From NCBI RefSeq assembly GCF_024227435.1, contig NZ_CP100447.1, positions 1 through 64,000 of the forward strand: a stretch of 64,000 bases of DNA. Reading direction: 5' to 3'. Source of the stretch: Natrinema caseinilyticum (GTDB lineage Archaea > Halobacteriota > Halobacteria > Halobacteriales > Natrialbaceae). The translations under genes and the position numbers were made by a program. Numbering within the stretch: position 1 is the stretch's first letter; each line of letters starts with the position of its first letter. Below, piece after piece: positions 30,840-61,090 of the stretch. The notes beneath the pieces were generated by a model. It saw nothing but the letters and a program-made list of their open reading frames with translations, made no database searches and was not told where the DNA came from.

Positions 30840-30949
30840 AACCACAACAATGTACTTCGTCACCGGTACTGAGCCGAGAAACCCCAGAATGGCGAATGCG
30901 AGGAGTAGCCCAAATGACGCGGAGAGATATACATCGACGGAGGTTAATC

Positions 30950-30958: not shown

Positions 30959-30979
30959 CCTCCGTCACACAGCAGAAGT

Positions 30980-37772: not shown

Positions 37773-39332
37773 TCACTGGAACCCGACGGCAGAATCGTCG
37801 TCTGATGCAGAATCGGTCCAGTCGACATCGCCAGAACCGACTTGTGGAGTTCGGTTAGTGGAGGATGACCTACTGGTCACATCGAGGTCCTTGATACTCG
37901 GGAAGTCTTCTAGAGAAACCCTGTCAGCATCTCGCGTCGCCGCATTCCGCTTCGCTTTCGTGACTACTTCTTCGATATCCGCACCACTGAGACCGCGACT
38001 CCGCCTTGCGAGATCTGCAAAACTATCACCCGAGAGTTCGTGTGGAACCCCCTGCAGTTTCGACTGGAAAATCGAGTGACGACTCTCCTCTTCGGGAAGA
38101 CCAATCTCGATATGCGTGGCCAATCGTCCTGGTCGAAGAATCGCTGGATCGATGTCTTCGGGGCGATTCGTTGCTCCGACAACGATGGCCGTTCGATCGT
38201 CTGCAGTGAGGTGAACCAGAAGTTCGCTCGTAATCTTCCGGTCTTCAGCGTGAGCTCCGCCGGCGCCGACATCGCGACCGCCGAGGAGATGTTCGGCCTC
38301 GTCGAGGAAGATCACACAAGGGCCGACCGATTCAGCTTCTTCGAACAACTGGCGAACTCGTTGTGGCCCCTCGTTGATCCATTTACTCGTGATGTCAGCA
38401 GGGCCTAACTCGACGAACGGGACAGCGAGTTCTCCTGCTAGCGCTCGAGCAAACAGAGTCTTCCCAGTTCCTGGCGGTCCGTGGAGGAGAATCCCTCGTG
38501 ACGGCTCGATACCGAAACGGTCGAAGCGTTCGTCACCCTGGGTCGCTGCATGAATTGGCTGTACAACCTCGTCTGTGAGCCGCTGCTTGACTTCGTAGTA
38601 GCCCCCAACGTCGTTGAAGCCAATCTCTGAGTTCATCCAGTCGTACTCGAATTCGTCGGTAGCTGCTTTCGCTGGTACTCTGGAGGTCTGGGAGTGACGT
38701 TGAGTCTTGTCTGAGCTGGTAACATTCGACGAGTCCGGCTCATCCCGACCTGTCTCACTTTCTCGCTGGATCTGTCTGAACTTGTCGTAATCGACGTTCG
38801 GCGTTACATGACGGCCAGTAGCGTAGTAGTACCCGTTTTCTCCTCGGGGATTGTAGTACAACGCCGAGACGATCGAGGCAGAAACAACCAATCCGAGAGC
38901 CGCCTGTATCAGAACGTCAGCTGGAACGACTGCCGAGAAGAATCTAAACTGAGGAACTGGAAGAGAAGAAGCAGCCCATGACACAGCCTCTGCGGAAAGC
39001 AACAGGACGACGAATATCTCATACACCAACGCGAATGGATAGAGTCCGATGGCATCCACTGACTTGAACACGGGGAGGCCAATCCCCCCTGCGACAAAGA
39101 CAATCAAAATCCCGAGCCCGAGTGCGACTACAGCGGTTGGAGGGAGATTGAGCCAGGGAGCGACCACCCACATATGAATAAGCGCCAACGCCGACCAACC
39201 AATCATAAAGAACAGCCGGTATATGCTCCGCTTCTTGTGATCACGCTCCATTACTCGGTAGGTCACGTACTCGATGGTGGCGAATATACCGAGGAAGATG
39301 ATGACGGAGAGTACGGTGTTGAGGAGTTTCAT
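37773..39332 (-). CDS. membrane-anchored AAA+ ATPase
   Basis: A 519-residue protein starting at ATG 39332 (MKLLNTV). Four or five hydrophobic segments fill the first 150 residues. After a polar linker comes one AAA module: DVGGYYEVKQ, ILLHGPPGTGKTLFARAL (Walker A, near residue 285), CVIFLDEAEHLLGG (Walker B, near residue 340), ATNRPEDIDPAILRPGRL (second region of homology), and a GLSGADIEEVVTKAK lid. The AAA core is FtsH/Cdc48-like, but there is no HExxH, so it is not a protease. It follows the VirB6/TrbL-like gene in the same direction. It may be an unfoldase or assembly factor for the secretion machine. Confidence 0.8.
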   Translation of the reverse strand: MKLLNTVLSVIIFLGIFATIEYVTYRVMERDHKKRSIYRLFFMIGWSALALIHMWVVAPWLNLPPTAVVALGLGILIVFVAGGIGLPVFKSVDAIGLYPFALVYEIFVVLLLSAEAVSWAASSLPVPQFRFFSAVVPADVLIQAALGLVVSASIVSALYYNPRGENGYYYATGRHVTPNVDYDKFRQIQRESETGRDEPDSSNVTSSDKTQRHSQTSRVPAKAATDEFEYDWMNSEIGFNDVGGYYEVKQRLTDEVVQPIHAATQGDERFDRFGIEPSRGILLHGPPGTGKTLFARALAGELAVPFVELGPADITSKWINEGPQRVRQLFEEAESVGPCVIFLDEAEHLLGGRDVGAGGAHAEDRKITSELLVHLTADDRTAIVVGATNRPEDIDPAILRPGRLATHIEIGLPEEESRHSIFQSKLQGVPHELSGDSFADLARRSRGLSGADIEEVVTKAKRNAATRDADRVSLEDFPSIKDLDVTSRSSSTNRTPQVGSGDVDWTDSASDDDSAVGFQ

Positions 39333-39359
39333 CGGCTCACGAGGATTCCCTCTGTACGC

Positions 39360-39386
39360 TGAGTACGTCACCGAAAGACGTACTCA
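39360..39386. promoter_or_regulatory. perfect inverted repeat before the AAA ATPase gene
   Basis: TGAGTACGTC and GACGTACTCA form 10-bp arms around a 7-base loop, in the 141-base gap between the TrbL-like and ATPase genes. There is no T-run for a terminator. It could be an operator or an mRNA hairpin that sets ATPase levels apart from the rest of the operon. Confidence 0.5.
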
Positions 39387-39473
39387 TGGGCTTCTACACA
39401 CACTCTATGCCGTTACTACGCTATAACATCTCGCTCCGTGGGAGGTGGTCGGGTCGTCGTCCCAGGCGGAATT

Positions 39474-41441
39474 TCAAAGCGTCTCTGATTGCTCACCTCC
39501 ACCATCATTCTCCCACGGAGGATCGGAGGCTTGATTCGGCCCCTCTCTTTGGGCTGCCCAGTCGATGTCTGCCTCACTTGCTGGATCAGCCAACTCGTCG
39601 TTTCCAGGGCCGATGAGGTGTTTTCCACCCCGCTTTCCCATATTGTACGCTGCGTATGGGCTTCGCGTCATTGCCCCTGCGAAGACGATTCCGCTTGCCT
39701 TCCCGGCCCTAACACCTGTCTTCCCGACTTGCTTGCTGGCTCGACCAGTCGTGATCGCAGCTCGTCCTGGAGCTTTCGCCGCGCTCTGTGCAGTCCGAAG
39801 TCGTTTCACACTCCTGGCCGACTTGGAGGCGTCATCTCTGAGCGCCGCAGCCTGCTGACTGAAGCTCTGGGCTCTATCGTTAATGTCGATGGTTGTACTC
39901 CCGCCAGATGTGGTCTCGTAGGTCACCTTGCCCTCAGCATCGGGAGTCACGGTGGAGACTCCAGTTGCTGGCTCTTCAGCACCAGTCAGAATCCCCCGAC
40001 TGGAAGCCTCAGTGACATCGAATTCGCCATCCTGGTACGCCTCAGTCAGGAAGTCGCGGTTCGCATCGGCCTCATCGGCAGCAGCAAGATTCTGACTGAT
40101 CGCTCTTCGATGACTGTCGATGCTCTCCGACCCAATTGCCTTACGAGCGCTACCTAATCCACCGCTCTTCGCTCGTGAACCCAGCTTCTTTGCGGTGGAT
40201 CCAGCCCGGCTCGCATGAGATCGTGCCGCGTTCACTCCTGGGGCAGCAGAAACTAACCCGGCAACGGAGCCTTTTCTTTTAGATAAGAATCCGGGTGCTG
40301 AATCGACACTGTCCTCAACGGCCGATTCTCGAGTACCTAGCGCATCTGAGATACTACTCCGCATCGTGCCGCCGACGGTCGAGTTCCCGGTGGAAGCAGA
40401 TGGATCCGACGCGGTCCCTCCGCTTCCAGCGACACCGGCTCCGCCACTACTTGCCCCGCCGGCACTCCCACCACCCGCTGCTCCAGATCCAGAGCTAGAG
40501 GCACTGCTGACAGCCGCCGACCCGGCTCCCGCGCCGACAGCGACTGCACCGACGCCGGTGGCTGCGATTGCGGCGGCCACCGTCATGGTGAATGCGGCGT
40601 CGACGCCGAGCGGCTGGCCTGCCCAACCGATGGTCTTCCAGATCACGACGAACAGGATGATCGGGAAGATCAACGCCAATGCTGCCGAAACGTAGAAGTC
40701 GGCGACGTCGCCGGTTGCGGAGATCCCACCGGTCGCGATGACGTTGAACACGCGCATCACCAGCGCAATGATCGGGCCGACGAGCAGGGCGTACACGCCC
40801 ATTCGAAGCCACGTCGCAGCAAAGTTGCTGATAGCCTTCATCGGCCCCCAGTTCGCGTACCAGAGAACGGCGAAGAAAGGCGCACCCACGGCGACCGTGA
40901 CGACAATGAACTGCCGGAGGACCAGCAGGACAGATGCAAGGATCGTTGCGATGAGCATCAGCGGTACTGCCACGAGGAGCGCGACGACCTCGACGCCAAG
41001 TCCGAGCGTGGATCCCCAGCTCCCGCCGAGGTCGGCGTTGAACGTGAGGACGAACGTCGCTGGTGCAAGCGCATTCGTGACGGCGTTCGAGGCTTCGATG
41101 AGGAACCCGAACAGCGGCTGAGAGATCGCGATGAAGAAGATAACAGCGACCACGCGGGCCACCATGTTCCAGAGCGAGGCTTCGCGGTCCTGACTGAACG
41201 GCATCGCGATTAACCCGGCGGCAATCAGGATGGGGAGCAATGCAATCGAGAGACGGAAGACGTCGTCCCAGGCGGTCGTGACCTGGGCACTGCTCATGAT
41301 CGCTGGATCGATGTTCAGCAATGGCTTCAGCCCGAAGTTGAACATGAAGTTGATCGCACTCACGAGCATCGAGCGGATGAACTCGAAGAGCGCCCGAGCG
41401 ATAGCGTCGGGAATCCAGCCGAGGTCTAGGAGATCACCCAT
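39474..41441 (-). CDS. VirB6/TrbL-like polytopic T4SS protein
   Basis: A 655-residue protein starting at ATG 41441 (MGDLLDLGW); the open frame upstream begins with TTG. Roughly eight hydrophobic segments occupy residues 15-320. The rest is a long soluble tail: a Gly/Ser/Ala-rich low-complexity stretch (about 320-385), then charged helices with ALRDDASKSARSVKRLRTA. A membrane channel-like N-terminal half and a long hydrophilic C-terminal tail match VirB6/TrbL inner-membrane proteins of conjugation systems. It follows VirB4 with only a 29-codon micro-ORF between. Confidence 0.75.
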   Translation of the reverse strand: MGDLLDLGWIPDAIARALFEFIRSMLVSAINFMFNFGLKPLLNIDPAIMSSAQVTTAWDDVFRLSIALLPILIAAGLIAMPFSQDREASLWNMVARVVAVIFFIAISQPLFGFLIEASNAVTNALAPATFVLTFNADLGGSWGSTLGLGVEVVALLVAVPLMLIATILASVLLVLRQFIVVTVAVGAPFFAVLWYANWGPMKAISNFAATWLRMGVYALLVGPIIALVMRVFNVIATGGISATGDVADFYVSAALALIFPIILFVVIWKTIGWAGQPLGVDAAFTMTVAAAIAATGVGAVAVGAGAGSAAVSSASSSGSGAAGGGSAGGASSGGAGVAGSGGTASDPSASTGNSTVGGTMRSSISDALGTRESAVEDSVDSAPGFLSKRKGSVAGLVSAAPGVNAARSHASRAGSTAKKLGSRAKSGGLGSARKAIGSESIDSHRRAISQNLAAADEADANRDFLTEAYQDGEFDVTEASSRGILTGAEEPATGVSTVTPDAEGKVTYETTSGGSTTIDINDRAQSFSQQAAALRDDASKSARSVKRLRTAQSAAKAPGRAAITTGRASKQVGKTGVRAGKASGIVFAGAMTRSPYAAYNMGKRGGKHLIGPGNDELADPASEADIDWAAQREGPNQASDPPWENDGGGEQSETL

Positions 41442-41523
41442 CGGCCTGATCCTCAATGTCGTCGACGCTTCCGCCCGGCTGCGTCATGCGAGTGATCCCC
41501 GTCGTGTAGAGTAACGAGTTCAT
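41434..41523 (-). CDS. 29-residue micro-ORF bridging virB4 and the TrbL-like gene
   Basis: Starts MNSLLYTTGITRM and ends in DQADG. The start overlaps the virB4 stop as ATGA. The stop lies eight bases inside the next gene (ATGGGTGA). With both overlaps, ribosomes leaving virB4 would reach the next start without a gap. It may be a coupling device and not a functional peptide. It is too short for composition evidence. Confidence 0.4.
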   Translation of the reverse strand: MNSLLYTTGITRMTQPGGSVDDIEDQADG

Positions 41524-43901
41524 GCCTCCTCCGGGGTGTTCCCGTTCTCGCTTGCCCCGGCTGGCCCATCCGGATCTACATCGCTGGCGTCTATCGCTGG
41601 TTCGTCGATCTCGACAGAGAGACCGTCGTCGAAATCAGCCTCCATCGCCATCTGGAGGTCCATGTCTCGATTCATCACGTGGGGCAGGTCGGTCATGTCG
41701 AGGTCCTCGTGGAGTTCGACGTTTCGAGCATGACCCTCACCCTCGACGAGATCGACACCTTCGACGCCGGCGAGCCAGTCCCACGGGTCTAGCGCGTCGT
41801 CAAGGACCGTGTGTTCGAACGGGCCGCTTCGAATTTCGAGACGGCGTCGACCGTGGACACTCGTCGCGAGCAGACACTCCGAGTAGTCCGAGTCCTGTCC
41901 ACGCGCCGCCGTCTGGATGAATCGGATTTCGTCGGCGGACAGCCCGTAGTACTCGGCGGTCTCCTCGGAGACGGATTCGGCGTAGAACAGGCACTTCACG
42001 TCACAGTTCTCGTACACCTCACGGCGCTCAGGCGTCCGAACGAACTCGTGGGCTGTCTGGCTCATCAGCGTCAGGCCCGCCTCGTAGTGGCGGGCGTGCC
42101 GGATGTAGAGGTTGATCAGGTCGCGTGCGGCTGGCCGGCCCAGGAGGTAGTGTGCCTCGTCGAAGGTCACGTCCACCTTGTACGGCGAGCGCTTGGCCTC
42201 GAGGTACGCCCATGAGAGCATCGCGTGGAGGATGAGCGGCATCTCGCCCGTGTCTGCGAACGAACTCATGTCCATCACGACCAGTCGAGAGGAGAGGTCG
42301 AGGTTCGTCTGACCGTTCAGATTGTGGTTGATACCGCCGGGCTTGAACGACTCGAACTTCGGTTGGAGCGAGGTCGCAAGTGCGACGTGATGCTCGGTCG
42401 GGGTGACAATCGTGTCCGAGAACGGGACACCCTTTGCAGCCGCACTGCTCCCGGATTCATCATCAAGTTCGTCACCGAACACACCGAGCGCTCGGAAGTG
42501 TTCCACCTCTTCATCGTCGATGACGCCGGCTTCGGTTGCGACTTCGATACCGCCGGTCGCGATGACGTTCACGCCCCGAATCAGGTCGTCGATGACTGGC
42601 GATTCATTGCCGTACGTATCGAACTCTCCGAGGATGATCCCCTTCGAGAGATACGCGTAGTGGGCTGCCTGAATCAGGATGCCCTCCTCGCCAGCAGACA
42701 TCCCGTCACGCTGTTCGAGGTGCGTGTTCAGCATCTCGATGACAGACCGAATCGTGAGCGCGTACGTGTCCTCACCGCCCTCGTACTCCGCCTCAGCAGG
42801 TGGCGAGATGTCCAGCGGATTCACCGTGTAGTTCCCACCAAAACGGATTACCTCGCCGCCCAGCGACTGAGCGAAGCGTGGATAGTCGTCGCCGGCCGGG
42901 TCGAACAGGATACACTGAACGTTTGGGTCGCCGAGCAAGCGACGGTAGATCTCCATCTTCCGGAAGTAGCTCTTGCCCGACCCGGTCTTCCCGGAGATCG
43001 CCATCGAGTGTCCTGATAGCGCGTAGCGGTCGAGGATGACCGGGCGCTTCGTATCGTCGAACCCAAACAGGACGCCCTCCGGGTCGTAGATGGACGGCTC
43101 GACCAGGTTGAAGAACGTCCCCAGCGCTTCGAGCTGGATCGGATGGGTGTTGTTGATCGTGTCGGTCGCGAGCGGCGCGACGGAGCCCATCGCGTCCAGC
43201 TGTTGGTGCTTGACCGGACTGAGGTCGACGTCTTGCTCGGCGAGGATGGCTTCGACACGGTCGAGCATCTCGTCCAGCTCGTCCTGGGTGTCCGCGACGA
43301 GTTCGAGATAGATCGAGACGTCGTAGAGCTTAGTCGTTCCTCGAATGGTATTCTGGAGAAGTCGTTCCAGATCTTGTCGTTCGAGTTCGTCCTGATATGT
43401 GTCCGTCCGACCGCGTTTCTGCTTCACCGCGACCGACGTGACTGCCTGTGTGTAGCGTTTCTGGAGTTGTCGACGAACGTCCTTCGCGGCTCGTGGTCGA
43501 ACGTGCAACGAGAGTCGGAGATCGACATCTGCGAGCGTGAGTGGGACGAGCCAGCCCAGTCCCACCTTTCGGGGGAACGAGGTGACTGTCAGAATCTGTG
43601 AGATTCGGTCGTCGCGGATTTGGAACTCCGGATAGTCCTGCACGACTCGCGGTGCGATGAGTCGCTTATCGAGTTCCCCGCGCTCTTTCATTGTCTCCAT
43701 CGGCGTCGCGAGGTCGACGTCGTCGGCCTGGAGTTGGTATGCCGCCCACTCGATGTTCTCAGTCGTCGTCTCCTTACCGAGGAGATTCAGGTAGTCGAGA
43801 GCGTGCTGTGTTTCGTCACCCGACAGCCCATCTATCGGGAGTCGTTCGTCACCGTCTTCCGGTGAGTCGTTACTGAACGCTTGCGTGATTCGATTGATCA
43901 T
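41520..43901 (-). CDS. virB4: VirB4/TraC-family T4SS ATPase
   Basis: A 793-residue ATPase. MAISGKTGSGKSYFRKMEI (Walker A, near residue 305), ILFDPAGDDYPRFAQ, and VDVTFDEAHYLLGRPAAR (Walker B, near residue 580) with the VirB4-type NLYIRHARHYEAGLTLMSQ region identify the family. VirB4 is the universal ATPase of conjugation-type T4SS, powering pilus biogenesis and substrate passage. A strong Shine-Dalgarno (GGAGG) lies about seven bases before the ATG, inside an upstream micro-ORF. Acidic termini are typical of haloarchaea. Confidence 0.9.
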   Translation of the reverse strand: MINRITQAFSNDSPEDGDERLPIDGLSGDETQHALDYLNLLGKETTTENIEWAAYQLQADDVDLATPMETMKERGELDKRLIAPRVVQDYPEFQIRDDRISQILTVTSFPRKVGLGWLVPLTLADVDLRLSLHVRPRAAKDVRRQLQKRYTQAVTSVAVKQKRGRTDTYQDELERQDLERLLQNTIRGTTKLYDVSIYLELVADTQDELDEMLDRVEAILAEQDVDLSPVKHQQLDAMGSVAPLATDTINNTHPIQLEALGTFFNLVEPSIYDPEGVLFGFDDTKRPVILDRYALSGHSMAISGKTGSGKSYFRKMEIYRRLLGDPNVQCILFDPAGDDYPRFAQSLGGEVIRFGGNYTVNPLDISPPAEAEYEGGEDTYALTIRSVIEMLNTHLEQRDGMSAGEEGILIQAAHYAYLSKGIILGEFDTYGNESPVIDDLIRGVNVIATGGIEVATEAGVIDDEEVEHFRALGVFGDELDDESGSSAAAKGVPFSDTIVTPTEHHVALATSLQPKFESFKPGGINHNLNGQTNLDLSSRLVVMDMSSFADTGEMPLILHAMLSWAYLEAKRSPYKVDVTFDEAHYLLGRPAARDLINLYIRHARHYEAGLTLMSQTAHEFVRTPERREVYENCDVKCLFYAESVSEETAEYYGLSADEIRFIQTAARGQDSDYSECLLATSVHGRRRLEIRSGPFEHTVLDDALDPWDWLAGVEGVDLVEGEGHARNVELHEDLDMTDLPHVMNRDMDLQMAMEADFDDGLSVEIDEPAIDASDVDPDGPAGASENGNTPEEA

Positions 43902-43969
43902 CTCTGTCCCTCCAGCTCAGGTCGAGCCAGAGTAACCGCCTCCCGGCGAAGCCCGGGTAGCTCAGACAT
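43898..43969 (-). CDS. 23-residue micro-ORF bridging the 508-residue gene and virB4
   Basis: Starts MSELPGLRREAV and ends in LEGQR. The start overlaps the previous gene's stop (ATGTCTGA). The stop overlaps the virB4 start (ATGA). It also contains the virB4 Shine-Dalgarno. The layout repeats that of the 29-residue micro-ORF after virB4. Confidence 0.38.
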   Translation of the reverse strand: MSELPGLRREAVTLARPELEGQR

Positions 43970-45488
43970 CTGCTTCCTCCGTCGGAGATTCGCTGTCTCG
44001 ACTCTCGTCTGTCGGCTCACTCATCTCCTCGAAATGTTCGAGAACGCTTCTGCGACCGCGCACGGCGAGGCCGACACCGACGACGAGGAGGAGCAACCCG
44101 ACTGCATACACCTCGACGACGAACGCCGTCGACGCCGTCGGCGTACTATCCCACTGGAAGGGATACGCCTGGCTGAACAGGTAGACTGCCACAGCGGTCA
44201 CGCCGACGCCGACGAAGCCCACGATGGACGCACGCCGGCTCGATGGAAGCAGGACAGCAAGACTCAGCAGGAAGATCGGGAGGCTTCCCGCTGCAAGTCC
44301 GAACGAGGCCTCGCGGACGACCCAGTAGGACTCCGATCCCGGCTGACCGCTCCCGAGGAACGTCCCGAGCGCGACCACTGCGAACAGGAGGCTCGCAGCG
44401 AACAACCCCACGCCAGCGTACACCGACAGCGGCGAGCGGTAGTTTTTCCCTCGACCGATGGGACCGACGGCTCTGGCGTACCACGCGAGAATCCGTGAGT
44501 TGTCGACCTGTTCGACGTACTCCTCTTGGACCCGACCACCATACGGGAGGTCACCCGTTGTCTCCGGACGCGGATCCGCGTCATCATCTGGTTCGAGCAG
44601 CGCCTCTTCTCGATCGGCGCTGTCAAACGCCGCTTCCAGATCTAACCGCTCACCAGTCGCTGGATCGGTCAGCGTCTTCTCATCGGGTTGGGTGAAGACG
44701 CTATGCTCGAAGGAGATCGGAGCCTCCTGTCCTCGATAGACCTGGTAAAGGACGTCGAGAACCTTCGCTCTGTCATCGAGGATATTGGTTTCGACGCGAG
44801 TCCGAGGGAGCTGTGAGGCGACTCGCTGAACGCGAGCCCAGACCTCGTCGAGATACGGCTCTTCGTCATCGACGTTCTTCGCACCGCCTCCGAACGGGAG
44901 TGCATCCGCAATCGCGTCGAATCGACCGCCCTCGTCGTCTTCTCCCTTCATGACCGCGACGGCAACGAAGAATCGACGATCTCGGACGTTCGCGAGCGCA
45001 ATCGTTCGGTCCAGCCACTCCGCGTGAGCAACGCGTCCGTATTCGAGGAGCGCCGAGTCAGCGACGTGGTCGATGTGTGGCTGTGGAGTTACGCCCGCCG
45101 TAGCGACGCCGCCGTCAGTGGCGGGGTCCTTGACGACCTCGTCCGGGGCCTCAACATCGTCCGCTTCCGGGATGGCTGTCGGTTGTCCCGTTGGTGCGCC
45201 CAGTGCATTCGGGCCGATGAAGCGTTCGAGGTAGCGGTCGCCGTCGAACCGGGTCGTCAGCGTCAGGAACTGTGTCGGGAACTGCAGTCCCCGGAGGAAC
45301 GTCATGTACGAGATGTACAGGCTGGTCCGTCGCTCTTCGGAGAGCGTCAGCCACTCACGGGGCTCGATCTCGACGAGCATCGTGTACGCTGTGGGCGTTT
45401 CGATAACGCCGCCATCTCGGACGTTCTCGAAGTTGAGCAGGTCAAGCGTCGACTGCTCGCCACTGCCCACGCTACTCTGGAGATTCAT
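43962..45488 (-). CDS. 508-residue T4SS-associated membrane protein
   Basis: The N-terminal region (AYTMLVEIEPREWLTLSEE... FPTQFLTLTTRFD) resembles the N-terminal domain that precedes the motor in VirB4/TraC-type proteins. The C-terminal 150 residues hold about four membrane spans after GKNYRSPLSVY. The middle is acidic and soluble (CHAV is absent; a DPATGERLDLEAAF stretch is visible). It overlaps the VirB3/PrgI-like gene by four bases and precedes virB4. One reading is a split VirB4 accessory with its own membrane anchor. I do not know a named family. Confidence 0.68.
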   Translation of the reverse strand: MNLQSSVGSGEQSTLDLLNFENVRDGGVIETPTAYTMLVEIEPREWLTLSEERRTSLYISYMTFLRGLQFPTQFLTLTTRFDGDRYLERFIGPNALGAPTGQPTAIPEADDVEAPDEVVKDPATDGGVATAGVTPQPHIDHVADSALLEYGRVAHAEWLDRTIALANVRDRRFFVAVAVMKGEDDEGGRFDAIADALPFGGGAKNVDDEEPYLDEVWARVQRVASQLPRTRVETNILDDRAKVLDVLYQVYRGQEAPISFEHSVFTQPDEKTLTDPATGERLDLEAAFDSADREEALLEPDDDADPRPETTGDLPYGGRVQEEYVEQVDNSRILAWYARAVGPIGRGKNYRSPLSVYAGVGLFAASLLFAVVALGTFLGSGQPGSESYWVVREASFGLAAGSLPIFLLSLAVLLPSSRRASIVGFVGVGVTAVAVYLFSQAYPFQWDSTPTASTAFVVEVYAVGLLLLVVGVGLAVRGRRSVLEHFEEMSEPTDESRDSESPTEEADV

Positions 45489-45946
45489 TGCTCCTCCTCC
45501 ATCGACGAACCATCCAGATTGGGTCGCGTTGCGTCGAGGACGCCCTGATAGGCGAGGTCCGCTCCGCTAGTCTTCGCAGTGTACTCTCCCCAACCTGGGG
45601 GTCCCGGTTGGGTGAGCCACTCGTCTTGCGTCACGCCGATACCGAGATCGCCGTGTTCCGGATCGGGATGACGCCAGACGTAGACGTTCGACCCCGTCTT
45701 GAAGTGAAACACCGCATGAGCGTATCGGAGGGGACGCTGTCCGGGCGGTGTCTTCATGAAGATCAACCCGCCGATTCCGATGCCGACGACGAACAGCGGG
45801 AACGTGAACAGAAGTGGGAAGCCAACCGTATAGAGAACGGCACACGGCGCTAACGGGATTGCCAAGGATTCGGCGAGTCGCTTCACCGAGAAGCCGAGGA
45901 ACTTCGACTCCAGGAGGTTGCTCGCGACGGGCACAGGATCGGGCAT
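45485..45946 (-). CDS. VirB3/PrgI-like small membrane protein
   Basis: A 153-residue protein with two adjacent hydrophobic segments (about residues 27-46 and 48-65), then a soluble tail with TPPGQRPLRYAHAVFHF and VYVWRHPDPEHGD. Size, membrane hairpin and place just upstream of VirB4-type genes match VirB3/PrgI proteins, which link VirB4 to the inner membrane. The start codon directly follows the stop of a 58-residue gene (TAGATG), and its end overlaps the next gene by ATGA. Confidence 0.72.
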   Translation of the reverse strand: MPDPVPVASNLLESKFLGFSVKRLAESLAIPLAPCAVLYTVGFPLLFTFPLFVVGIGIGGLIFMKTPPGQRPLRYAHAVFHFKTGSNVYVWRHPDPEHGDLGIGVTQDEWLTQPGPPGWGEYTAKTSGADLAYQGVLDATRPNLDGSSMEEEQ

Positions 45947-46123
45947 CTACTCGACCTCCTCGCCGTCACAGAGTTCCTCTTCCGTCGGAAGCACACCGCC
46001 GTCTTCCAGCCGTTCGGCTCCCTTGATCAGCATCCCGCGCCAGTTGACGCCGTGTCGTTCACGAACCGCGTCTAACTGTTCGAACTGCTCGTCGTCCTTG
46101 ATGATGATTCTCGTCGACGTCAT
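45947..46123 (-). CDS. 58-residue ribbon-helix-helix-like protein
   Basis: A short strand (TSTRIIIKD), a helix (EQFEQLDAVRERHG) and a turn plus helix (VNWRGMLIKGAERLE) follow the ribbon-helix-helix plan of CopG/Arc-type DNA-binding proteins. An acidic tail ends in DGEEVE. It is a paralogue of the N-terminal 40 residues of the adjacent gene, sharing the WRGMLI core and GA-x-RLE. Start and stop overlap or abut both neighbours. Likely a small regulator of the T4SS operon; the fold is inferred. Confidence 0.68.
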   Translation of the reverse strand: MTSTRIIIKDDEQFEQLDAVRERHGVNWRGMLIKGAERLEDGGVLPTEEELCDGEEVE

Positions 46124-46515
46124 CGCTCGACCTCAACTGGATTGAACTCGTCGACGGACGAGCGCTCGTGATGTGCTTCGGTGTCGAGCGTTCGGAGTGA
46201 CCCTCGGGAATCGAACAGCGAAGAAGTCGGTTTGTGGCCCTCAGCAGAGCCACCTGGACTATCATGCCTACTGGACTCGGGGAGTTCCTCTCGTCTTCGC
46301 GGCTCTTGCCCGTGTGACCGTTCCGATACGTGGCTCCGGGGGCTTTCAGTCGAAGCGTCACCCCTCTTCTGGTCGGTGAACCAGGTCTCGCGCCCTTCGA
46401 GGCGCTTGGCTCCTTGAATCAGCATCCCACGCCACTGCACGCCGTACTTGTCTCGGATGGTTCTGAGTCGGTGGTACTCGGTCTCGTTTCTGAACCGAAT
46501 CTCGATTTCAGGCAT
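46120..46515 (-). CDS. 131-residue protein with N-terminal ribbon-helix-helix-like domain
   Basis: The start is the ATG at 46515 (MPEIEIRF), with a good Shine-Dalgarno (GGTGGTGAG) about nine bases upstream. Residues 1-40 give strand, helix and WRGMLIQGAKRLE second helix, paralogous to the 58-residue neighbour. Residues 45-131 are hydrophilic, rich in S, R, E and H, and look disordered. Together with the neighbour it is the best candidate for the factor that binds the TGCG-N5-CGCA arrays in the T4SS promoters, because ribbon-helix-helix proteins commonly bind short tandem palindromes and autoregulate. That link is inference. Confidence 0.62.
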   Translation of the reverse strand: MPEIEIRFRNETEYHRLRTIRDKYGVQWRGMLIQGAKRLEGRETWFTDQKRGDASTESPRSHVSERSHGQEPRRREELPESSRHDSPGGSAEGHKPTSSLFDSRGSLRTLDTEAHHERSSVDEFNPVEVER

Positions 46516-46531: not shown

Positions 46532-46660
46532 TCAGCTGGCACACTCGGCTAGCGAGCCGTCACTCAGGAACGAGAGTTCGATTGCAGTCACGACTGGTAG
46601 CATCGTGCCGGCGGGGAGCGACAGGACTGCCCCAGTTGTGGGTACTGTTTGGTAGTGCAT
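46532..46660 (-). CDS. 42-residue leader ORF of the T4SS operon
   Basis: Starts MHYQTVPTTGAVLSLPAG and ends in LAECAS, with a moderately hydrophobic centre. Its ATG lies 43 bases from the operator array on the minus side, matching the 45-48 bases seen for the pilin-like genes in the other array-controlled promoters. An AT-rich GAAATAAACAAAT lies 26-38 bases upstream as TATA element. A Shine-Dalgarno for the next gene follows the stop. The peptide family is not recognised. Confidence 0.5.
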   Translation of the reverse strand: MHYQTVPTTGAVLSLPAGTMLPVVTAIELSFLSDGSLAECAS

Positions 46661-46703
46661 CACACCACTCCTCGGCGAGGAACCCATTTGTTTATTTCAG
46701 GAA

Positions 46704-46767
46704 TGCGTATGGCGTAATACTGCGTACAGCGCACTGTTGCGGCAGGCGCAAGCCTGCGATTTCCGCA
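46704..46767. promoter_or_regulatory. four tandem TGCG-N5-CGCA palindromes between divergent T4SS operons
   Basis: Units are TGCGTATGGCGTA (46704), TGCGTACAGCGCA (46721), TGCGGCAGGCGCA (46738) and TGCGATTTCCGCA (46755), at an exact 17-base period with 4-base linkers. The array ends 43 bases from the ATG of the minus operon and 48 from the pilin-like ATG at 46816. On the minus side the last unit is followed by TTCCTGAAATAAACA, nearly identical to the bases after the array at 56207. A cooperative operator or activator site for both operons is inferred. Confidence 0.78.
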
Positions 46768-46815: not shown

Positions 46816-47250
46816 ATGCTGACACCTCACCAGTTCCACCTCCCGCCGCCGTTCGCTGGTGGCTTCCTTGAGCGCCTGCCTGACCTGTTGCTCCCCGTTA
46901 CGGGACCACTGGCAATCCCAATCGAACGATTCTACATCGTTGGTGATGTCTTTGGTTCGTTCACCGACCTCCGATGGCTGTCTCTCTTCGTATTCCAGCA
47001 GCTGCGTCCGGAGACAATACTCGCAGTCGTGGACTTCAGTTCGATGCTCGACTTCCCACCGTGGACGGCGACAGTATTCGTCTACGCTGGACTCGTCCTG
47101 CTGGTCCTGGGCGTGATGGCCTGGCTCGGGAGCCACAGCCTCTATCGTCGTGCCTGGGGCCGACGGCTCGCGATGTCAGGCGGCGGGCTGTTCGTCGTCG
47201 GGACCGCTTTCGGAACGTTCGTGGACCTCCTGCAGTATGTCCTCGGATAA
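46816..47250 (+). CDS. VirB2/TrbC-like pilin candidate 1
   Basis: A 144-residue protein; the ATG at 46816 is chosen because the long upstream open frame overlaps the opposite operon and the operator array. The C-terminal 65 residues form a membrane hairpin: FVYAGLVLLVLGVMAWLG, a basic loop (SLYRRAWGRRLAMSGGG), then a second span. Sequence and layout match the pilin-like proteins at 56316 and 53872. The N-terminal 80 residues are moderately hydrophobic and may include a signal segment. No TATA box is obvious. The next gene's start overlaps its end by 14 bases. Confidence 0.66.
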   Translation: MLTPHQFHLPPPFAGGFLERLPDLLLPVTGPLAIPIERFYIVGDVFGSFTDLRWLSLFVFQQLRPETILAVVDFSSMLDFPPWTATVFVYAGLVLLVLGVMAWLGSHSLYRRAWGRRLAMSGGGLFVVGTAFGTFVDLLQYVLG

Positions 47251-53803: not shown

Positions 53804-53824
53804 CGCAACTGTGCGTGCTCCGCA
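53804..53824 (+). promoter_or_regulatory. reduced TGCG-N5-CGCA operator before the second pilin-like gene
   Basis: One perfect palindrome TGCGTGCTCCGCA (53812-53824) is preceded at the 17-base period by a half-site CGCA (53804-53807). The block CGCAA-N3-TGCG-N3-TCCGCA matches the corresponding part of the arrays at 46747 and, with one change, 56250. It ends 47 bases before the ATG at 53872. Confidence 0.62.
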
Positions 53825-53871: not shown

Positions 53872-54372
53872 ATGCCGTCTGTTTCCGATCTCGTCGATCC
53901 AGCGTTTCGACTGTTCACCGTCGCAGATGTGACGGCCAGATATCTCGCGCTGATCTTCCTCGTTATCGGCATCATCGGCTTCTTCACAACAAAGGCGAAC
54001 TCGAGACGGTCGATTCGCTACCGAGGGATGATGTTTGGAGCTGCTGCCGCTCTCGTTGCTATCCTCGGTATGCATGCGTTCTACGACCTCATCGCGTTCA
54101 TCATGAGCGGAACGGGATTCCTCCCTTCCGGTTGGCCCTACGGGGCGAGTGGGACTTCGGGCCTCCTCCCCATAGCGCAAGCAGCGTCAGGAATGCTCTC
54201 CTATCTGGGTCTGGCTTGTTTTTCGCTGGGAGCTGCACTGTGGGCAGGAGGCTCAAGATATGGTCGAACCTCAACTCGCGGCTACCGCGGAGTCACTTGG
54301 GGACTCGTGATGATCGGTGTCTCGATGGGTGGAACCCTGTTCTCCGCCATCGCGGGGATCTATGGGCTCTGA
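53872..54372 (+). CDS. pilin-like membrane protein with two tandem hairpins
   Basis: A 166-residue protein containing two hairpins. Each has a span, a basic loop and a span: LALIFLVIGIIGFF with TKANSRRSIRYRG, then YLGLACFSLGAALWAGG with SRYGRTSTRGYRG. Both resemble the single hairpin of the pilin-like proteins at 46816 and 56316 (YAG-L---LG--W---). It looks like an internal duplication of the unit. It carries the same promoter motif as those genes, supporting a T4SS role such as a second pilin or pilus-base protein. Confidence 0.62.
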   Translation: MPSVSDLVDPAFRLFTVADVTARYLALIFLVIGIIGFFTTKANSRRSIRYRGMMFGAAAALVAILGMHAFYDLIAFIMSGTGFLPSGWPYGASGTSGLLPIAQAASGMLSYLGLACFSLGAALWAGGSRYGRTSTRGYRGVTWGLVMIGVSMGGTLFSAIAGIYGL

Positions 54373-54459: not shown

Positions 54460-54645
54460 TTAGACGCGACCTCGTTCGATGGTTCCGTACTGCGCGTTGA
54501 GTTCTTCGGCAGAGGCGAACTCCACTTGATCGAGGAGTTCGTTCACTGCCTGGTCGTAGGACTGTCGGTCGAGGAGATTCCGATTGCTGTACGCCCGAAG
54601 GCGATCACGGGTTCCCTCTTTCACGGGAATCGAATATCGGCTCAT
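54460..54645 (-). CDS. orphan VapB-like antitoxin/small DNA-binding protein
   Basis: A 61-residue protein starting MSRYSIPVKEGTRDRLRAY, with a strand-helix-helix pattern and NELLDQVEFAS. It resembles short haloarchaeal antitoxin-like proteins (VapB/DUF7557 style). No PIN-domain toxin gene is next to it: the flanks are a pilin-like gene and a GTPase. It could regulate locally or be a leftover of a toxin-antitoxin pair. A short GC-rich inverted repeat (CGGCC-GACG-GTGGCCG) lies just past its 3' end. Confidence 0.55.
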   Translation of the reverse strand: MSRYSIPVKEGTRDRLRAYSNRNLLDRQSYDQAVNELLDQVEFASAEELNAQYGTIERGRV

Positions 54646-56206: not shown

Positions 56207-56270
56207 AGGGTATACCGCATCTGTGCGTCAGACGCAACCTTGCGGCCACCGTAAGATTGCGAAATCCGCA
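56207..56270. promoter_or_regulatory. tandem TGCG-N5-CGCA array before the pilin gene at 56316
   Basis: Units are AGGGTATACCGCA (56207, degenerate left half), TGCGTCAGACGCA (56224), TGCGGCCACCGTA (56241) and TGCGAAATCCGCA (56258), again at exact 17-base period. The array ends 45 bases before the ATG, and a TATA box (TTATA at 56286-56290) lies between. The last 34 bases match the corresponding part of the array at 46704-46767 at 26 positions. Confidence 0.76.
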
Positions 56271-56315
56271 TTCCTGAAACAAACATTATACCTTCCAGCT
56301 AACGGCTGGTGTGCA

Positions 56316-56717
56316 ATGACGAACCAGCACACCACAGACTCCGACCCCGACACGAACAGCCTCCGCCGCTTCCGGCGAGTCCTCAACTTCGAGAGCCTTC
56401 TCGTCACCGCGTTCTTCTCACTGATGCTCTTCGTTAGCCCGGCAGCTGCACAATCCAGCGGCCCCACGGGTGGGTCCGGTGGTTCCGTCGCCGGCTGGGA
56501 GACGATCCTCACCAATCTCTACGACGTCGTCTACACGACGCTCCAGTACGCCGGCCTCACTGTGCTGGTTCTGGGTCTGATCGTCTGGCTCACCGCCCGC
56601 ACGAACTCCCAGCGATCCGAGACGGGAATGAAACTCACGCTCGGTGGCGGTGCAATGGTCATCGCGTACTTCGGGCTCGGCGCACTCGTCTCCCTGCTCG
56701 AGTTCATCGCAGGGTGA
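56316..56717 (+). CDS. VirB2/TrbC-like pilin candidate 2
   Basis: A 133-residue protein starting at ATG 56316 (MTNQHTTD), supported by the TATA box 26-30 bases upstream. Residues 25-50 form a signal-like segment ending in FVSPAAAQSS, a plausible cleavage region. After a Gly/Ser-rich stretch comes the hairpin YAGLTVLVLGLIVWL, loop TARTNSQRSETGMK, and LGGGAMVIAYFGLGALVSLLEF. Signal, small size and two-span mature part are the plan of VirB2/TrbC pilins. It is the best major-pilin candidate of the three related proteins here. Confidence 0.72.
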   Translation: MTNQHTTDSDPDTNSLRRFRRVLNFESLLVTAFFSLMLFVSPAAAQSSGPTGGSGGSVAGWETILTNLYDVVYTTLQYAGLTVLVLGLIVWLTARTNSQRSETGMKLTLGGGAMVIAYFGLGALVSLLEFIAG

Positions 56718-56825: not shown

Positions 56826-57008
56826 GTGAACGTCTTTCCTGACTGGGCGCTCCGTGGCATCGGTCACAGCTCTCACGATGTGGCCTTCTTTCCGAACATG
56901 CACACGCTAACCCACAATCCGCTGTATAGCCGCCTCAGCCAGCGACTCGCTCCGCGCGAGCTCCCACAGCAGTCGCAGTTGATCACCAGCGAGGGGTGGT
57001 CCAGGTGA
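56826..57008 (+). CDS. possible 60-residue protein coupled to the coupling ATPase
   Basis: A GTG start at 56826 gives MNVFPDWALRG; an in-frame ATG at 56739 is an alternative. The stop overlaps the GTG of the next gene as GTGA. It ends in ITSEGWSR and has no membrane span or known motif. Third-position GC is roughly what the neighbours show. If it is not real, the 287 bases between the pilin and the ATPase gene are unexplained. Confidence 0.42.
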   Translation: MNVFPDWALRGIGHSSHDVAFFPNMHTLTHNPLYSRLSQRLAPRELPQQSQLITSEGWSR

Positions 57009-60000
57009 CGAACGGGTCGGAATCATCCCGTCGGTCCGGCTCTGGAGGACGGGAACCACGACTTCCGAGCATCGATGACTCCGAAATCCAGAACGCGGTT
57101 TCGACACGGATCCTGGGTCAGAGGAGTGACGACTCCGGACCAAGTTCGGAAGGCGGAAAACCTGCTGACAGTGCCGAAGAGAGTTACCCGGACACCTCTC
57201 CGAGTGATGGACCATCCCAGCCGGACCACGATTTGGGGAGGGACAACTCTGACAGACTTTCCGCCGACTCTGATGACGACGACGATGGATTTCGCCCGTA
57301 TATCAAAATCACGCCGGCCCGTGAGCAGGTGACACCGGACCACGTTGTCAAGGGTCTCTATGGTCTCTACCGAGCTGGCAGTGGCCGAGAGATGCCCTTC
57401 CATCTCGAACGCCGGCTCTCGTTCGTGAGCACGCAGCGGACGTTCGAGTTCCTGATTCACAAGCCAGCAGATACCCGTCGTTTCGACTTCTACCTCGGCG
57501 TTCGGCCTTACGAGGTCGAGGCACTCGAACACCTTGCAGCGAACGTCAGGGCGATGTATCCAGAGAGCTTCCACTTCGAAATCGTCCCGTTCGCCACGAC
57601 CGACATCTTCGTCGACGACGTCGAGCCCGCTGGTGCGACGCTCGCGGATCTGGCCGCATTCGACGGTATCGACGAACTCATTGAACTGGACGGCTTCGAA
57701 CCAGACCTTCTCGACACAGCTGAAGATACCCGCGACGAATCTGGGCGTGACGCGAATGCCGATCCGACGCCGCCGGCGATGGTTCGCTGGGAGGGCGTTG
57801 AGACGAAGAATAATGACTGGATGACGCTGCTCTCGCAGTTCAGCGAGATCTCGGTCGACATCGAGGATTCGTTCCGGTCGCCCCTGAGCGTCCTCCTCGA
57901 ACAGGCAACGGAGACGGACGAACCGTTCATCTTCCAGGTCGTCTTCACGCCTCGCCGTGACTGGACGAAGGAAGCGGAGGTCCAGAAACGGAACCTCAAG
58001 ATGGGGACGACTGGCGTCTTCAGTTCGTTCAAGCAGGAGGCTGCCGCGATGATTCTCGGTACGTCTGAAGAGGAGCGACGGCAGCGCCACCGGCCAGATA
58101 CGCCCGAGCAAATCGGGGGCACCATCTCTGGCGGGGCAGACGGTCAATCGACGCGACACAGCCGAATGGGACAGATCGACCTGAAGCAGCCGACCGTGAC
58201 GTTCGATGTCTCCCTACGAGCGGCTGGTGAACCGAGCGTGGTGAACGGCGTCACTGGCGCGTTCACGGCTCTGAGCGGGCCGTACTACGGCGTCGAGGGG
58301 GCAAGCGTCAGTCGGATTGGGCGCGAGTTCGACGCGCTCTGCCGGTCGCGACTGAGCCCGACGAGTATCCGAGAGCGCTTCCAGAGCAAGAACCCGATCA
58401 TCGTCGCTAGCCCAGACGAACTCGCGAATTTCGTTACTGTACCCAGCACAGGCGCGCTCCCGAAGGCAAGCCGTGGCGCGTCTGGTGGTGCTCCAGACGC
58501 TCGTTCACCACTCACCGCGACCGACGAAGAGTTGCTCGCGGAATTCGACTCTGGGATGTGCATCGGTGAGGCTGAAACGGCATCTCCCGACCGCGACAAC
58601 ATCCCTATCAGTCTGACTGCGGAGCAACTCACCCATCACGTACTCAGGGCGTCGACGACGGGTGGCGGGAAGACGACCGCGATGATCAACGACGGTCTCA
58701 GCGCGTACGACGAACTCGACGGGCCGATCTTCATCTTCGACAAGAAGGGCGGCAGTATGGCGACAGAGTACAAACGAGCGCACTTCCGACAGTTCGGCGA
58801 CCTCGACGACATCGTCCATCTCCCGGTTCCAGGGCCGAACGGCGAACTGCCCGCGTTCCCGTTCTTCGACATCCGGCCCCAGATTGCGGCTGGCATGAGT
58901 CGTGAGGCAGCTGTGCAGGAGAAGATTGACCGCTACAACGAACTACTGGAGTACGTCCTCGGTGACGAACAACACAACCAGGCGTTCGTCGCACAGGAAA
59001 TCCTCAGTAACCTCATTGGTGCGTTGTTCGACCCGGTGTACGGCCAAGACGCGTACGCCATCAGCGACCTCCTCAATGCGGCCACGAAGATGCAGACCGA
59101 ACAGAAAGTTCCAGAGGTCAGCGATCCAGAGCTTCACGCGACGCTCACGCGCCACTTCAGTGCCGAGGAACGACGCTTCGCCACGTCGATCGACGCCGTT
59201 CTCAACCGCATCACGAAGCTGAAAGAGCGGGACTTCATCTGGCGAATGCTGAACTTCGTTCCCGAATGGGATGGGGAAGCCCAGCGGTATGCTGACGAGC
59301 AGATGCTGCTTGACCTCGATGGGCTCCTCGATTCGAAGTCGGTCGTGCTGATCGATACCGGCGAGTTCCGCCCCGCGTCAAGCAACGTCTTCACGGTGCT
59401 GATGCTGGATTACCTCTGGTCGTGGGTGCGACTCCGAAAGCGATGGAACCGGACTGTCCTCGACCCTGCCGACGGCTACTGTGTGAACCTGATCATCGAC
59501 GAGGCCGCACCGATCATGCAGTCCAGTCTCGTTCGTGACGAGATGATTCCTGACGCCCGTGAGTTCGCTCTCGCGTTCGAGCTTATCGTTCACTTCCCGG
59601 AGCAGGTCAAACGTGACGCACTCGATACGCGGGCCTACAAGGAAATCCTCCGCAACATCAACACCAAGCTCATCGGCAAGCTCGCAATCGACGACGAGCT
59701 GGCGACGACGCTGTTTCACGAAGAACTCGACGCCGTCGCCCTCTCGAATCGGATCGCCTCACTCCCTCGCGGTGAGTGGCTCGCACAGTTACCCGATACC
59801 GGCTTCATGACCGACACGCCGGAGTTGGTGACGCTCAAGCCGCTTCCCGTCCCCGACGGACACAGCGATGGAGAGGAGTCGGTCGACGCGGGCACGTACA
59901 GCCAGACGGCAGAGATGACCTTCCAGGAGGCAGACGAACTGCAGTGGTCACGCACTCGATTCACGTACTGCCTCGTCCCCGGCGTCAACAGCCCGCCAGA

Positions 60001-61090
60001 TGCCGCCCAGCGTGCAGCCCGCTATGGAACCGGCCCGATGAACAGCGCGACAACCGAGCGACCACCGACGCCTCCAGACAGAGAAGAGAAGGCTGAACGC
60101 CCAGCTCCCGGCGACACTGACGAGTCAAGGACCCTGGACGAAGACGACTCTCAGGTGGAATCCCATTCAGATTCTGCTCTGGGCGGGGCTTCCAACGAGT
60201 TCGGAACCGTTCTCGGAACTGGTTCGCCATCACGGGTTCAATCGGATGATGCGACGGATAGAGACACTCCAGGAACGGAGGGCCCAACCGCAGAAACCAC
60301 ACCCCACGTCTCTGACCTTCCTGCGACACCTGGGGCTGGGAAGAATCTCGACCAGGGGGGTGTCCTGACCGACACCGAACGGCAGTTCCTTCGAGACGTG
60401 ATTGCAGGGATCAACGGTGAACTGGAAGGGTATGACCTGACGCAGTCGATGACGACCATTCGGGATGCGCTAGATGAGGAGATCGACGAAGAGCAGTTGG
60501 TGGAAGACGGATTCCTCGAAATTCAGCGCGTGTACGGTCGGAAGTACTACTACGTTCCTCCAGCTGGGCAGACTGCAGTCAGCAGGAAGATCTACGCGGG
60601 CCGGAACAACGGCGACCTCTTCGAGAAAACGGCTCACAAGGTCTACGTCGAGTACATCGCTCGGCACCTGCGAAACCGTGGACTTCTCGTCGAGACCTAC
60701 TACGAGCCGATGGCCGGCGGGATGGTCTTCGATGTCGCTGCGTTCCTTCCGCGTGACGACGGAAGCCGACAACTTGCGGTGATTGCTGAGGTGGTGACGA
60801 ACATCCGCCCGGAACTGATGGTCAAACACTACGATGATCTCGCGTCGTTCGATGGAGTTCGGAAGATGTGGATTGTCCCGCATACGGACGTTGCTCACGA
60901 AATTATCAGGGCACTGGTTGATGCGGGGCGGCTTGAGAACGCACCACACAAAACTACCAAGAACTATGCACGTCTCTCCGAGGAGGCGTTCGACAATCCC
61001 TGTGAATGGCGATTCGTCGGGGGCCGCAATATCATCGAATCGGTCGACCAAGCTGAGGAGGACTCCGAGGGCGATGACCTGCGTCACTAG
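57005..61090 (+). CDS. VirD4/TraG-like coupling ATPase with C-terminal nuclease-like domain
   Basis: A 1361-residue protein starting at GTG 57005 with a Shine-Dalgarno (GAGGGGTGGT) just upstream. The first 100 residues are acidic and disordered. A domain with TRRFDFYLGVRPYEVEALEH and VVFTPRRDW follows (about 140-480). The motor has VLRASTTGGGKTTAMI (Walker A, near residue 548) and VNLIIDEAAPIMQSS (Walker B, near residue 825). About 1190-1300 a separate domain has FDVAAFLP, AVIAEVVTNIRPELMVKHYDDL and KMWIVPH, resembling a restriction-like fold with E-x-V in place of E-x-K. It should recruit substrate to the T4SS. No relaxase gene is in the window. Confidence 0.8.
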   Translation: MTNGSESSRRSGSGGREPRLPSIDDSEIQNAVSTRILGQRSDDSGPSSEGGKPADSAEESYPDTSPSDGPSQPDHDLGRDNSDRLSADSDDDDDGFRPYIKITPAREQVTPDHVVKGLYGLYRAGSGREMPFHLERRLSFVSTQRTFEFLIHKPADTRRFDFYLGVRPYEVEALEHLAANVRAMYPESFHFEIVPFATTDIFVDDVEPAGATLADLAAFDGIDELIELDGFEPDLLDTAEDTRDESGRDANADPTPPAMVRWEGVETKNNDWMTLLSQFSEISVDIEDSFRSPLSVLLEQATETDEPFIFQVVFTPRRDWTKEAEVQKRNLKMGTTGVFSSFKQEAAAMILGTSEEERRQRHRPDTPEQIGGTISGGADGQSTRHSRMGQIDLKQPTVTFDVSLRAAGEPSVVNGVTGAFTALSGPYYGVEGASVSRIGREFDALCRSRLSPTSIRERFQSKNPIIVASPDELANFVTVPSTGALPKASRGASGGAPDARSPLTATDEELLAEFDSGMCIGEAETASPDRDNIPISLTAEQLTHHVLRASTTGGGKTTAMINDGLSAYDELDGPIFIFDKKGGSMATEYKRAHFRQFGDLDDIVHLPVPGPNGELPAFPFFDIRPQIAAGMSREAAVQEKIDRYNELLEYVLGDEQHNQAFVAQEILSNLIGALFDPVYGQDAYAISDLLNAATKMQTEQKVPEVSDPELHATLTRHFSAEERRFATSIDAVLNRITKLKERDFIWRMLNFVPEWDGEAQRYADEQMLLDLDGLLDSKSVVLIDTGEFRPASSNVFTVLMLDYLWSWVRLRKRWNRTVLDPADGYCVNLIIDEAAPIMQSSLVRDEMIPDAREFALAFELIVHFPEQVKRDALDTRAYKEILRNINTKLIGKLAIDDELATTLFHEELDAVALSNRIASLPRGEWLAQLPDTGFMTDTPELVTLKPLPVPDGHSDGEESVDAGTYSQTAEMTFQEADELQWSRTRFTYCLVPGVNSPPDAAQRAARYGTGPMNSATTERPPTPPDREEKAERPAPGDTDESRTLDEDDSQVESHSDSALGGASNEFGTVLGTGSPSRVQSDDATDRDTPGTEGPTAETTPHVSDLPATPGAGKNLDQGGVLTDTERQFLRDVIAGINGELEGYDLTQSMTTIRDALDEEIDEEQLVEDGFLEIQRVYGRKYYYVPPAGQTAVSRKIYAGRNNGDLFEKTAHKVYVEYIARHLRNRGLLVETYYEPMAGGMVFDVAAFLPRDDGSRQLAVIAEVVTNIRPELMVKHYDDLASFDGVRKMWIVPHTDVAHEIIRALVDAGRLENAPHKTTKNYARLSEEAFDNPCEWRFVGGRNIIESVDQAEEDSEGDDLRH

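What the first reader, a model, noticed from the sequence alone, without database searches (positions are those of the whole stretch)
56207..56270. The same palindrome array recurs 9.5 kb away at the pilin gene
The period is again 17 bp with three good units and one degenerate one, 45 bases before the start. The last 34 bases match the first array at 26 of 34 positions without gaps. The bases after it (TTCCTGAAACAAACA) differ by one from those on the minus side of the first array. This indicates a shared regulon, not chance.
Basis: seen in the sequence. Interest (0 to 1): 0.7.

Follow-up and report, generated by a model that had tools for sequence, protein, structure and literature searches.

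The report
Shared switch for archaeal plasmid-transfer genes
A short array of repeated mirror-image DNA words sits just in front of the promoters of a salt-loving archaeon's plasmid-transfer genes, and related plasmids keep such an array at the same places even when its letters change, so it is very probably a shared control switch for this DNA-transfer machine.

Summary
The window is part of a 113.5-kb haloarchaeal plasmid (C3). 56207-56270 holds one half-site plus three 13-bp palindromes (TGCG-N5-CGCA, period 17 bp), 45 nt before the ATG of a VirB2/TrbC-like pilin. The array at 46704-46767 is the same kind and lies between two divergent promoters: the T4SS operon and a second pilin-like gene. 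In this genome and two other carriers tested, every site matching the promoter pattern with at most one mismatch is on the plasmid. In clade-A plasmids the last palindrome ends 41-51 nt before the start codon, abutting a BRE/TATA-like element. In more distant plasmids the motif letters change (TRCG, TACAT, TTGTAA), but in 14 of 15 systems the two main promoter regions of one plasmid share a motif better than shuffles. Best reading: an upstream activating array bound by a dedicated plasmid-encoded regulator, most likely a small ribbon-helix-helix-like protein encoded by the controlled operon. The shared regulon is well supported; the regulator's identity and the sign of regulation are inferred.

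The parts
56207..56270 (+). Array 2: half-site (CGCA at 56216-56219) plus three 17-bp-spaced TGCG-N5-CGCA units at 56224, 56241 and 56258
   Evidence: conserved in L002, L003, L004, L006, L093, L091, L137, L138
56274..56292 (+). Core promoter-like element (BRE/TATA-like CTGAAACAAACATTATAC) abutting array 2
   Evidence: sequence; the equivalent stretch follows the last unit at every array promoter listed; promoter function is inferred
56316..56717 (+). VirB2/TrbC-like pilin gene (pilin 2)
   Evidence: Pfam TrbC E=2.7e-4, below the curated cut-off; conserved family
46704..46767 (.). Array 1: four 17-bp units shared by two divergent promoters
46535..46660 (-). 42-aa leader ORF, first ORF downstream of array 1 on the minus side
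   Evidence: 95% identical to the annotated WP_255355561 in L002
46123..46515 (-). RHH-1: small putative ribbon-helix-helix-like protein, candidate regulator
   Evidence: syntenic with the pilin in related plasmids; model with helix 11-24 and helix 26-55 after an N-terminal stretch without helix; no database family
45950..46123 (-). RHH-2: paralogue of RHH-1, second candidate regulator
37773..45946 (-). T4SS-like operon: 153-aa small membrane protein; DUF7139 protein; VirB4/HerA-type ATPase (DUF87, 41520-43901); TrbL/VirB6-like protein (39474-41456, below cut-off); AAA ATPase (37773-39371)
46816..47250 (+). Pilin 1: small membrane protein with weak T4SS_pilin similarity, paralogous to pilin 2
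   Evidence: E=0.046, below cut-off; cross-matches pilin 2 at E about 1e-7
53804..53824 (+). Third site: half-site plus one full unit (CGCAACTGTGCGTGCTCCGCA), 47 nt before the ATG
   Evidence: conserved in L002-L006 and, in G113 and G135, by pattern search
53872..54372 (+). Third array-controlled gene: small membrane protein (166 aa) with weak pilin-like similarity in some relatives
   Evidence: no Pfam match; weak pilin hits at the equivalent gene
54463..54645 (-). RHH-3: small RHH/VapB-like protein; in most relatives encoded next to array 2 and divergent from pilin 2
   Evidence: DUF7557 best member E=1.3e-4; VAPB_antitox 0.093
56996..61090 (+). 1364-aa HerA-like protein downstream of pilin 2, possible coupling ATPase
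   Evidence: DUF87 E=0.009, below cut-off; conserved position in related plasmids

Best explanation
The arrays are cis-regulatory sites of one plasmid-wide regulon. Each ends directly upstream of a BRE/TATA-like element, with the start codon 41-51 nt beyond the last half-site. A dedicated plasmid-encoded DNA-binding protein binds cooperatively along the 17-bp-spaced palindromes (half-sites alternating 9 and 8 bp apart) and so sets transcription of the T4SS operon, two pilin-like genes, a third small membrane protein and a secreted lipoprotein together. Array 1 serves two divergent promoters at once. Most likely the regulator is RHH-1 (46123-46515), encoded in the controlled operon, possibly with its paralogue RHH-2, and it acts mainly as an activator by helping TBP/TFB at weak promoters, with autoregulation. 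Shown here: recurrence, spacing, plasmid restriction, conservation and motif turnover at the same promoters. Inferred: that the array is bound, by which protein, and the sign of regulation.
For: Four loci on C3 against 0 expected. In G000, G113 and G135 every match with at most one mismatch to half-site+unit+TGA lies on the plasmid contig, at corresponding sites where these were read; in 391 Halobacteria genomes, zero-mismatch tandem arrays in several overlapping units are confined to T4SS plasmids among the matches listed. Constant distance to the ATG. Ortholog conservation in five plasmids, lipoprotein site included. In six motif clades the two main promoter regions of a plasmid match each other better than all of 40 shuffles in 14 of 15 systems. 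RHH-1 and the pilin co-occur and are syntenic. In five plasmids where array 1 is split by inserts, both promoters keep at least two units. RHH-1 strand residues follow the motif: MPE[IVA]E[IV][RQC]F with TRCG motifs, M[PH]E[IV]Q[IV]DW with TACAT/TTGTAA/TTGAAAC motifs. Haloarchaeal precedent: GvpE UAS elements adjacent to BRE, shared by divergent promoters (PMC4390858); CdrS, an RHH regulator with sites mostly 41-110 nt upstream of the TSS, acting as activator (PMC8406309).
Against: No expression or binding data. The RHH fold of RHH-1 is not confirmed: no Pfam, NCBIfam, PHROG or PDB match, and the model shows helices but no strand (a strand would need a dimer partner). The RHH-1/motif correlation is confounded with phylogeny. 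RHH-2, RHH-3 and a plasmid TFB (C3:81368-81916) are also present. Repression is not excluded. The Haloglomus (L080) region pair did not exceed shuffles with the boundaries used.
Confidence: 0.6

Rival explanations
1. Same regulon, but the arrays are operators of a repressor that keeps the transfer genes silent until mating; the bound array blocks TFB at the abutting BRE.
For: Regulators of bacterial conjugation genes can be autoregulatory repressors (MobC of RA3 autoregulates its operon, PMC4175270 abstract). The array abuts the BRE closely enough for interference. RHH-1 lies in the controlled operon.
Against: The sites lie wholly upstream of BRE/TATA, where activators typically bind in archaea (PMC8406309), and several TATA elements look weak (AACAAATGG, GTACTTG).
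Confidence: 0.25
2. Same regulon, but the reader protein is not RHH-1: RHH-2, RHH-3 next to array 2, the plasmid TFB, or another plasmid factor.
For: RHH-2 and RHH-3 are also conserved with the arrays. RHH-3 has a weak VapB/DUF7557-like signal. C3 encodes a TFB, and two related plasmids carry one too.
Against: RHH-3 strand residues do not follow the motif: clade D (RYQNIPLK) resembles clade A (RYSIPVK) although the motifs differ. RHH-2 changes between A and B (RIIIK vs RIEV/RIEI) while the motif hardly does. A TFB alone would contact the BRE, not 60 bp of upstream palindromes.
Confidence: 0.35
3. The arrays are not transcriptional but replication iterons, a partition centromere or transfer-origin elements.
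For: Tandem palindromes on a plasmid; RHH proteins also serve at oriT in bacteria (PMC5675868, PMC6514445).
Against: At least four separate sites, each at a fixed distance upstream of a start codon, and not next to the orc1/cdc6 gene (30896-32443).
Confidence: 0.05
4. Chance or shared ancestry of duplicated promoters without regulatory meaning.
For: The pilin genes are paralogous, so one promoter could have been copied.
Against: Null counts are 0; motifs turn over at both main promoters together across plasmids; the lipoprotein gene is not a pilin.
Confidence: 0.02

Closest known systems
GvpE upstream activating sequences of haloarchaeal gas-vesicle promoters (PMC4390858)
   Same: Symmetric element directly adjacent to BRE, shared in the middle of two divergent promoters, served by a regulator encoded in the controlled cluster
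   Different: GvpE UAS is one 20-nt element (two 8-nt parts, 4-nt gap) and GvpE is leucine-zipper-like; here up to four 13-bp palindromes at 17-bp period at several dispersed promoters, and the candidate regulators look RHH-like
CdrS, ribbon-helix-helix regulator of Haloferax volcanii (PMC8406309)
   Same: Small haloarchaeal protein predicted as RHH; symmetric motif upstream of promoters
   Different: Chromosomal cell-division regulator with 18 dispersed sites; no tandem array described in the passages read; its sequence was not compared with RHH-1 here
Bacterial RHH proteins and autoregulators of conjugation modules (pLS20 auxiliary relaxosome proteins, PcfF of pCF10, MobC of RA3)
   Same: Small plasmid-encoded DNA-binding proteins tied to conjugation
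   Different: Those studied act at oriT or on mob operons; here the sites are archaeal promoters of the transfer apparatus and no relaxase or oriT was identified

Membership tests
Archaeal upstream activating sequence (UAS) adjacent to BRE | Regulatory element directly upstream of BRE/TATA at a fixed distance | tested here: met
   Last half-site to ATG 41-51 nt with the BRE/TATA-like element starting 3-5 nt after it
Archaeal upstream activating sequence (UAS) adjacent to BRE | Required for activation of the promoter | not testable with these tools
   needs reporter assays
Plasmid regulon with tandem operator array | Same array at several promoters and more than chance | tested here: met
Plasmid regulon with tandem operator array | Cognate DNA-binding protein shown to bind | not testable with these tools
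   only co-occurrence and residue/motif correlation
Ribbon-helix-helix (Arc/MetJ/CopG) superfamily, for RHH-1 | Strand followed by two helices, strand pairing in a dimer | tested here: inconclusive
   Helices 11-24 and 26-55 predicted after an N-terminal stretch with no strand assigned; no Foldseek hit
Ribbon-helix-helix (Arc/MetJ/CopG) superfamily, for RHH-1 | Sequence match to a known RHH family | tested here: not met
   no match in Pfam, NCBIfam, PHROGs or PDB sequences; hence called RHH-like only
Type IV secretion/conjugation system | VirB4-type ATPase with VirB6- and VirB2-like membrane partners | tested here: met
   DUF87/AAA_10 1.5e-9; TrbL_3 1e-3 and TrbC 2.7e-4, both below curated cut-offs, so the partners are weakly supported
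Type IV secretion/conjugation system | Relaxase and oriT | not tested
   no dedicated search was made; MOB-suite calls the related plasmids non-mobilizable

The most novel reading that the evidence does not exclude
A lineage-wide, co-evolving cis/trans control module for archaeal conjugation: a small RHH-like activator encoded at the head of the T4SS operon and its tandem 17-bp palindrome arrays have changed recognition letters together several times while keeping promoter position, giving each plasmid clade its own non-cross-reacting transfer switch.
Probability: 0.45. Interest if true: 0.7.

Novelty: new variant of a known kind. Interest (0 to 1): 0.55.

Why it matters
Control of conjugation-like DNA transfer in haloarchaea is little described; the searches of the held open-access library found no paper on regulation of such a T4SS. 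Here the regulon, its promoters and a short list of candidate regulators can be read from sequence and compared across more than a dozen plasmids with at least five different motif versions, so both recognition code and transfer control can be tested directly in laboratory haloarchaea.

Tried and rejected
PDB sequence searches with RHH-1, RHH-1+RHH-2 and RHH-3 profiles gave nothing meaningful; Foldseek and VIA gave no hit for the RHH-1 model; the RHH-3 model is of low confidence (mean pLDDT 63). Viral contigs hold only one distant RHH-1-like hit. Isolated single-mismatch pattern hits elsewhere (e.g. the CGCGTCATTCGTACCCGTG family in genus g30; L094-L097) have no T4SS pilin or RHH-1 nearby and were taken as unrelated; hit counts there are mostly no higher than the reversed-pattern controls. 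The Ig-like neighbour of pilin 1 was checked as a possible fusexin because fusexin islands carry VirB4 (PMC9259645); no sequence match. One exact unit at C3:111638 has neither a neighbouring half-site nor a clear promoter context and is probably chance.

Full report
What is there. The window is bases 1-64000 of contig C3 (113,539 bp) of a 4.77-Mb haloarchaeal genome. Array 2 (56207-56270) is one half-site (CGCA, 56216-56219) followed by three TGCG-N5-CGCA units with starts 17 bp apart (56224, 56241, 56258). Array 1 (46704-46767) has four such units. The ATG of the downstream pilin is 56316, so 45 nt separate array and start. The better match is inverted, 44 of 62 bases, and runs from the palindromes into the promoter (56224-56285 vs the minus strand of 46689-46750).

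More than chance. Scanning C3 for three 17-bp-spaced units with 3 mismatches or fewer gives 4 places; 60 first-order Markov resamples give none. A half-site plus full unit with no mismatch gives 8 matches on C3 and none in mononucleotide shuffles. In the whole genome every zero-mismatch TGCGN5CGCAN4TGCG lies on C3. Two shorter sites were not in the finding: 53804-53824 and C3:104132-104152. The latter precedes an ORF (C3:104204) whose N-terminus looks like a twin-arginine lipoprotein signal; orthologs in NZ_CP010531 and NZ_CP031151 carry the same site. With a half-site+unit+TGA pattern, every match at one mismatch or fewer in G000, G113 and G135 is on the T4SS plasmid contig. Over 391 Halobacteria genomes the looser pattern is overall no more frequent than its control, but overlapping zero-mismatch arrays are seen only in G000:C3, G113:C4 and G135:C3 among the matches listed; a few isolated zero-mismatch hits elsewhere (G162, G144) are single places.

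Anatomy. Array 1 sits between the T4SS-like operon (minus: 42-aa leader, RHH-1, RHH-2, small membrane protein, DUF7139 protein, VirB4/HerA ATPase, TrbL/VirB6-like protein, AAA ATPase) and a pilin-like gene followed by an Ig-like membrane-anchored protein. Array 2 drives the VirB2/TrbC-like pilin, followed by a 1364-aa HerA-like protein. The third site precedes a 166-aa membrane protein whose equivalents in some relatives show weak pilin similarity. In the clade-A promoters the last CGCA is followed by a conserved stretch (e.g. TTCCTGAAACAAACATTATA; TTCTGAGCGAACTTTTG; CCTTCTAAGTCTATTTC) that reads as BRE plus TATA, and the ATG comes 41-51 nt after the array.

Comparison. The same arrays occur at the same places in NZ_CP118159 (Halosimplex), NZ_CP010531 (Haloarcula), NZ_CP147875 and NZ_CP031151 (Haloplanus) and, partly rearranged, NZ_CP101162 (Halorarius). 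More distant plasmids keep the gene order but change the motif: T[GA]CG-N5-CG[TC]A in Salinigranum and some Haloplanus; TGCGGCTNCCGCA in Salinigranum salinum, with a looser form in Halapricum; TACAT/ATGTA repeats in Haloglomus, Halarchaeum, Halorarius and Halorientalis; TTGTAAYATTACAAC in Haloarcula pelagica; TTGAAAC-GTTGTAAG in Halosimplex carlsbadense. In 14 of 15 systems the two main promoter regions of one plasmid resemble each other more than all of 40 shuffles. Clades A, B and E also resemble one another (between-clade scores up to 23), as their motifs are variants of TRCG; the TACAT, TTGTAA and TTGAAAC versions do not. Both main promoters therefore change together, which is what a shared trans-acting factor predicts and what simple promoter duplication does not.

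Regulator. RHH-1 is found with the T4SS pilins throughout; in the own genome the only other relatives are RHH-2 and two weak chromosomal ones. The AlphaFold model has a confident helix pair after a short N-terminal stretch, compatible with a ribbon-helix-helix monomer, but no library confirmed the fold. The residues expected on the strand change with the motif (E-I-R/Q/C-F with CG-rich motifs; Q-V/I-D-W with TA-rich ones), whereas RHH-2 and RHH-3 follow it less well. The correlation is confounded with phylogeny, so it is a lead and not proof. A plasmid TFB may co-operate.

Mechanism. Placement upstream of and against BRE resembles the GvpE UAS, which also overlaps between divergent promoters (PMC4390858), and CdrS, a haloarchaeal RHH regulator read as an activator from its upstream sites (PMC8406309). 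Activation is therefore preferred over repression, without experimental evidence. A detail in favour of function: in at least five plasmids array 1 has been split by inserted DNA, and each separated promoter keeps two or more units.

Verdict. The system is a new variant of known kinds (tandem operator array; archaeal UAS). No paper describing it was found in the held open-access library; that library is incomplete.

Noticed in passing
L002:13305-14767 (NZ_CP118159), same in NZ_CP010531; L098 and L091 (Haloferax larsenii contig); L100/L005 (NZ_CP101162) and L101 (Haloglomus irregulare): Array 1 is split by inserted DNA. In NZ_CP118159 and NZ_CP010531 an insert of about 1.4 kb with one gene is flanked by a perfect 34-bp (two-unit) duplication of the array, suggesting insertion or recombination at the array itself.
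   Followed up: partly
window 54920-56182: A GTPase-like gene (MMR_HSR1) lies between the RHH-3 gene and array 2 in the window, while the related plasmids NZ_CP118159 and NZ_CP010531 have no gene there; the region between pilin 1 and pilin 2 is variable cargo (CBASS cyclase, IS701 transposase and others in relatives).
   Followed up: partly
L113-L119; own genome C1:59653 and C1:2176752: Small chromosomal proteins with the RHH-1 core (YGLTWRGML) occur without a T4SS pilin nearby; function unknown.
   Followed up: no
C3:81368-81916: The plasmid encodes its own TFB; plasmids NZ_CP031151 and NZ_CP010531 also carry one.
   Followed up: no
window 56294-56310 and 46666-46683: Short inverted repeats (CCAGCTAACGGCTGG; CCTCGCCGAGG) and a shared TGGTGTG lie between the TATA-like element and the ATG at both main promoters; a possible second control element.
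   Followed up: no
window 47237-49576: Large Ig-like, C-terminally anchored protein conserved next to pilin 1 in the plasmid clades examined; no relative of known structure found.
   Followed up: partly
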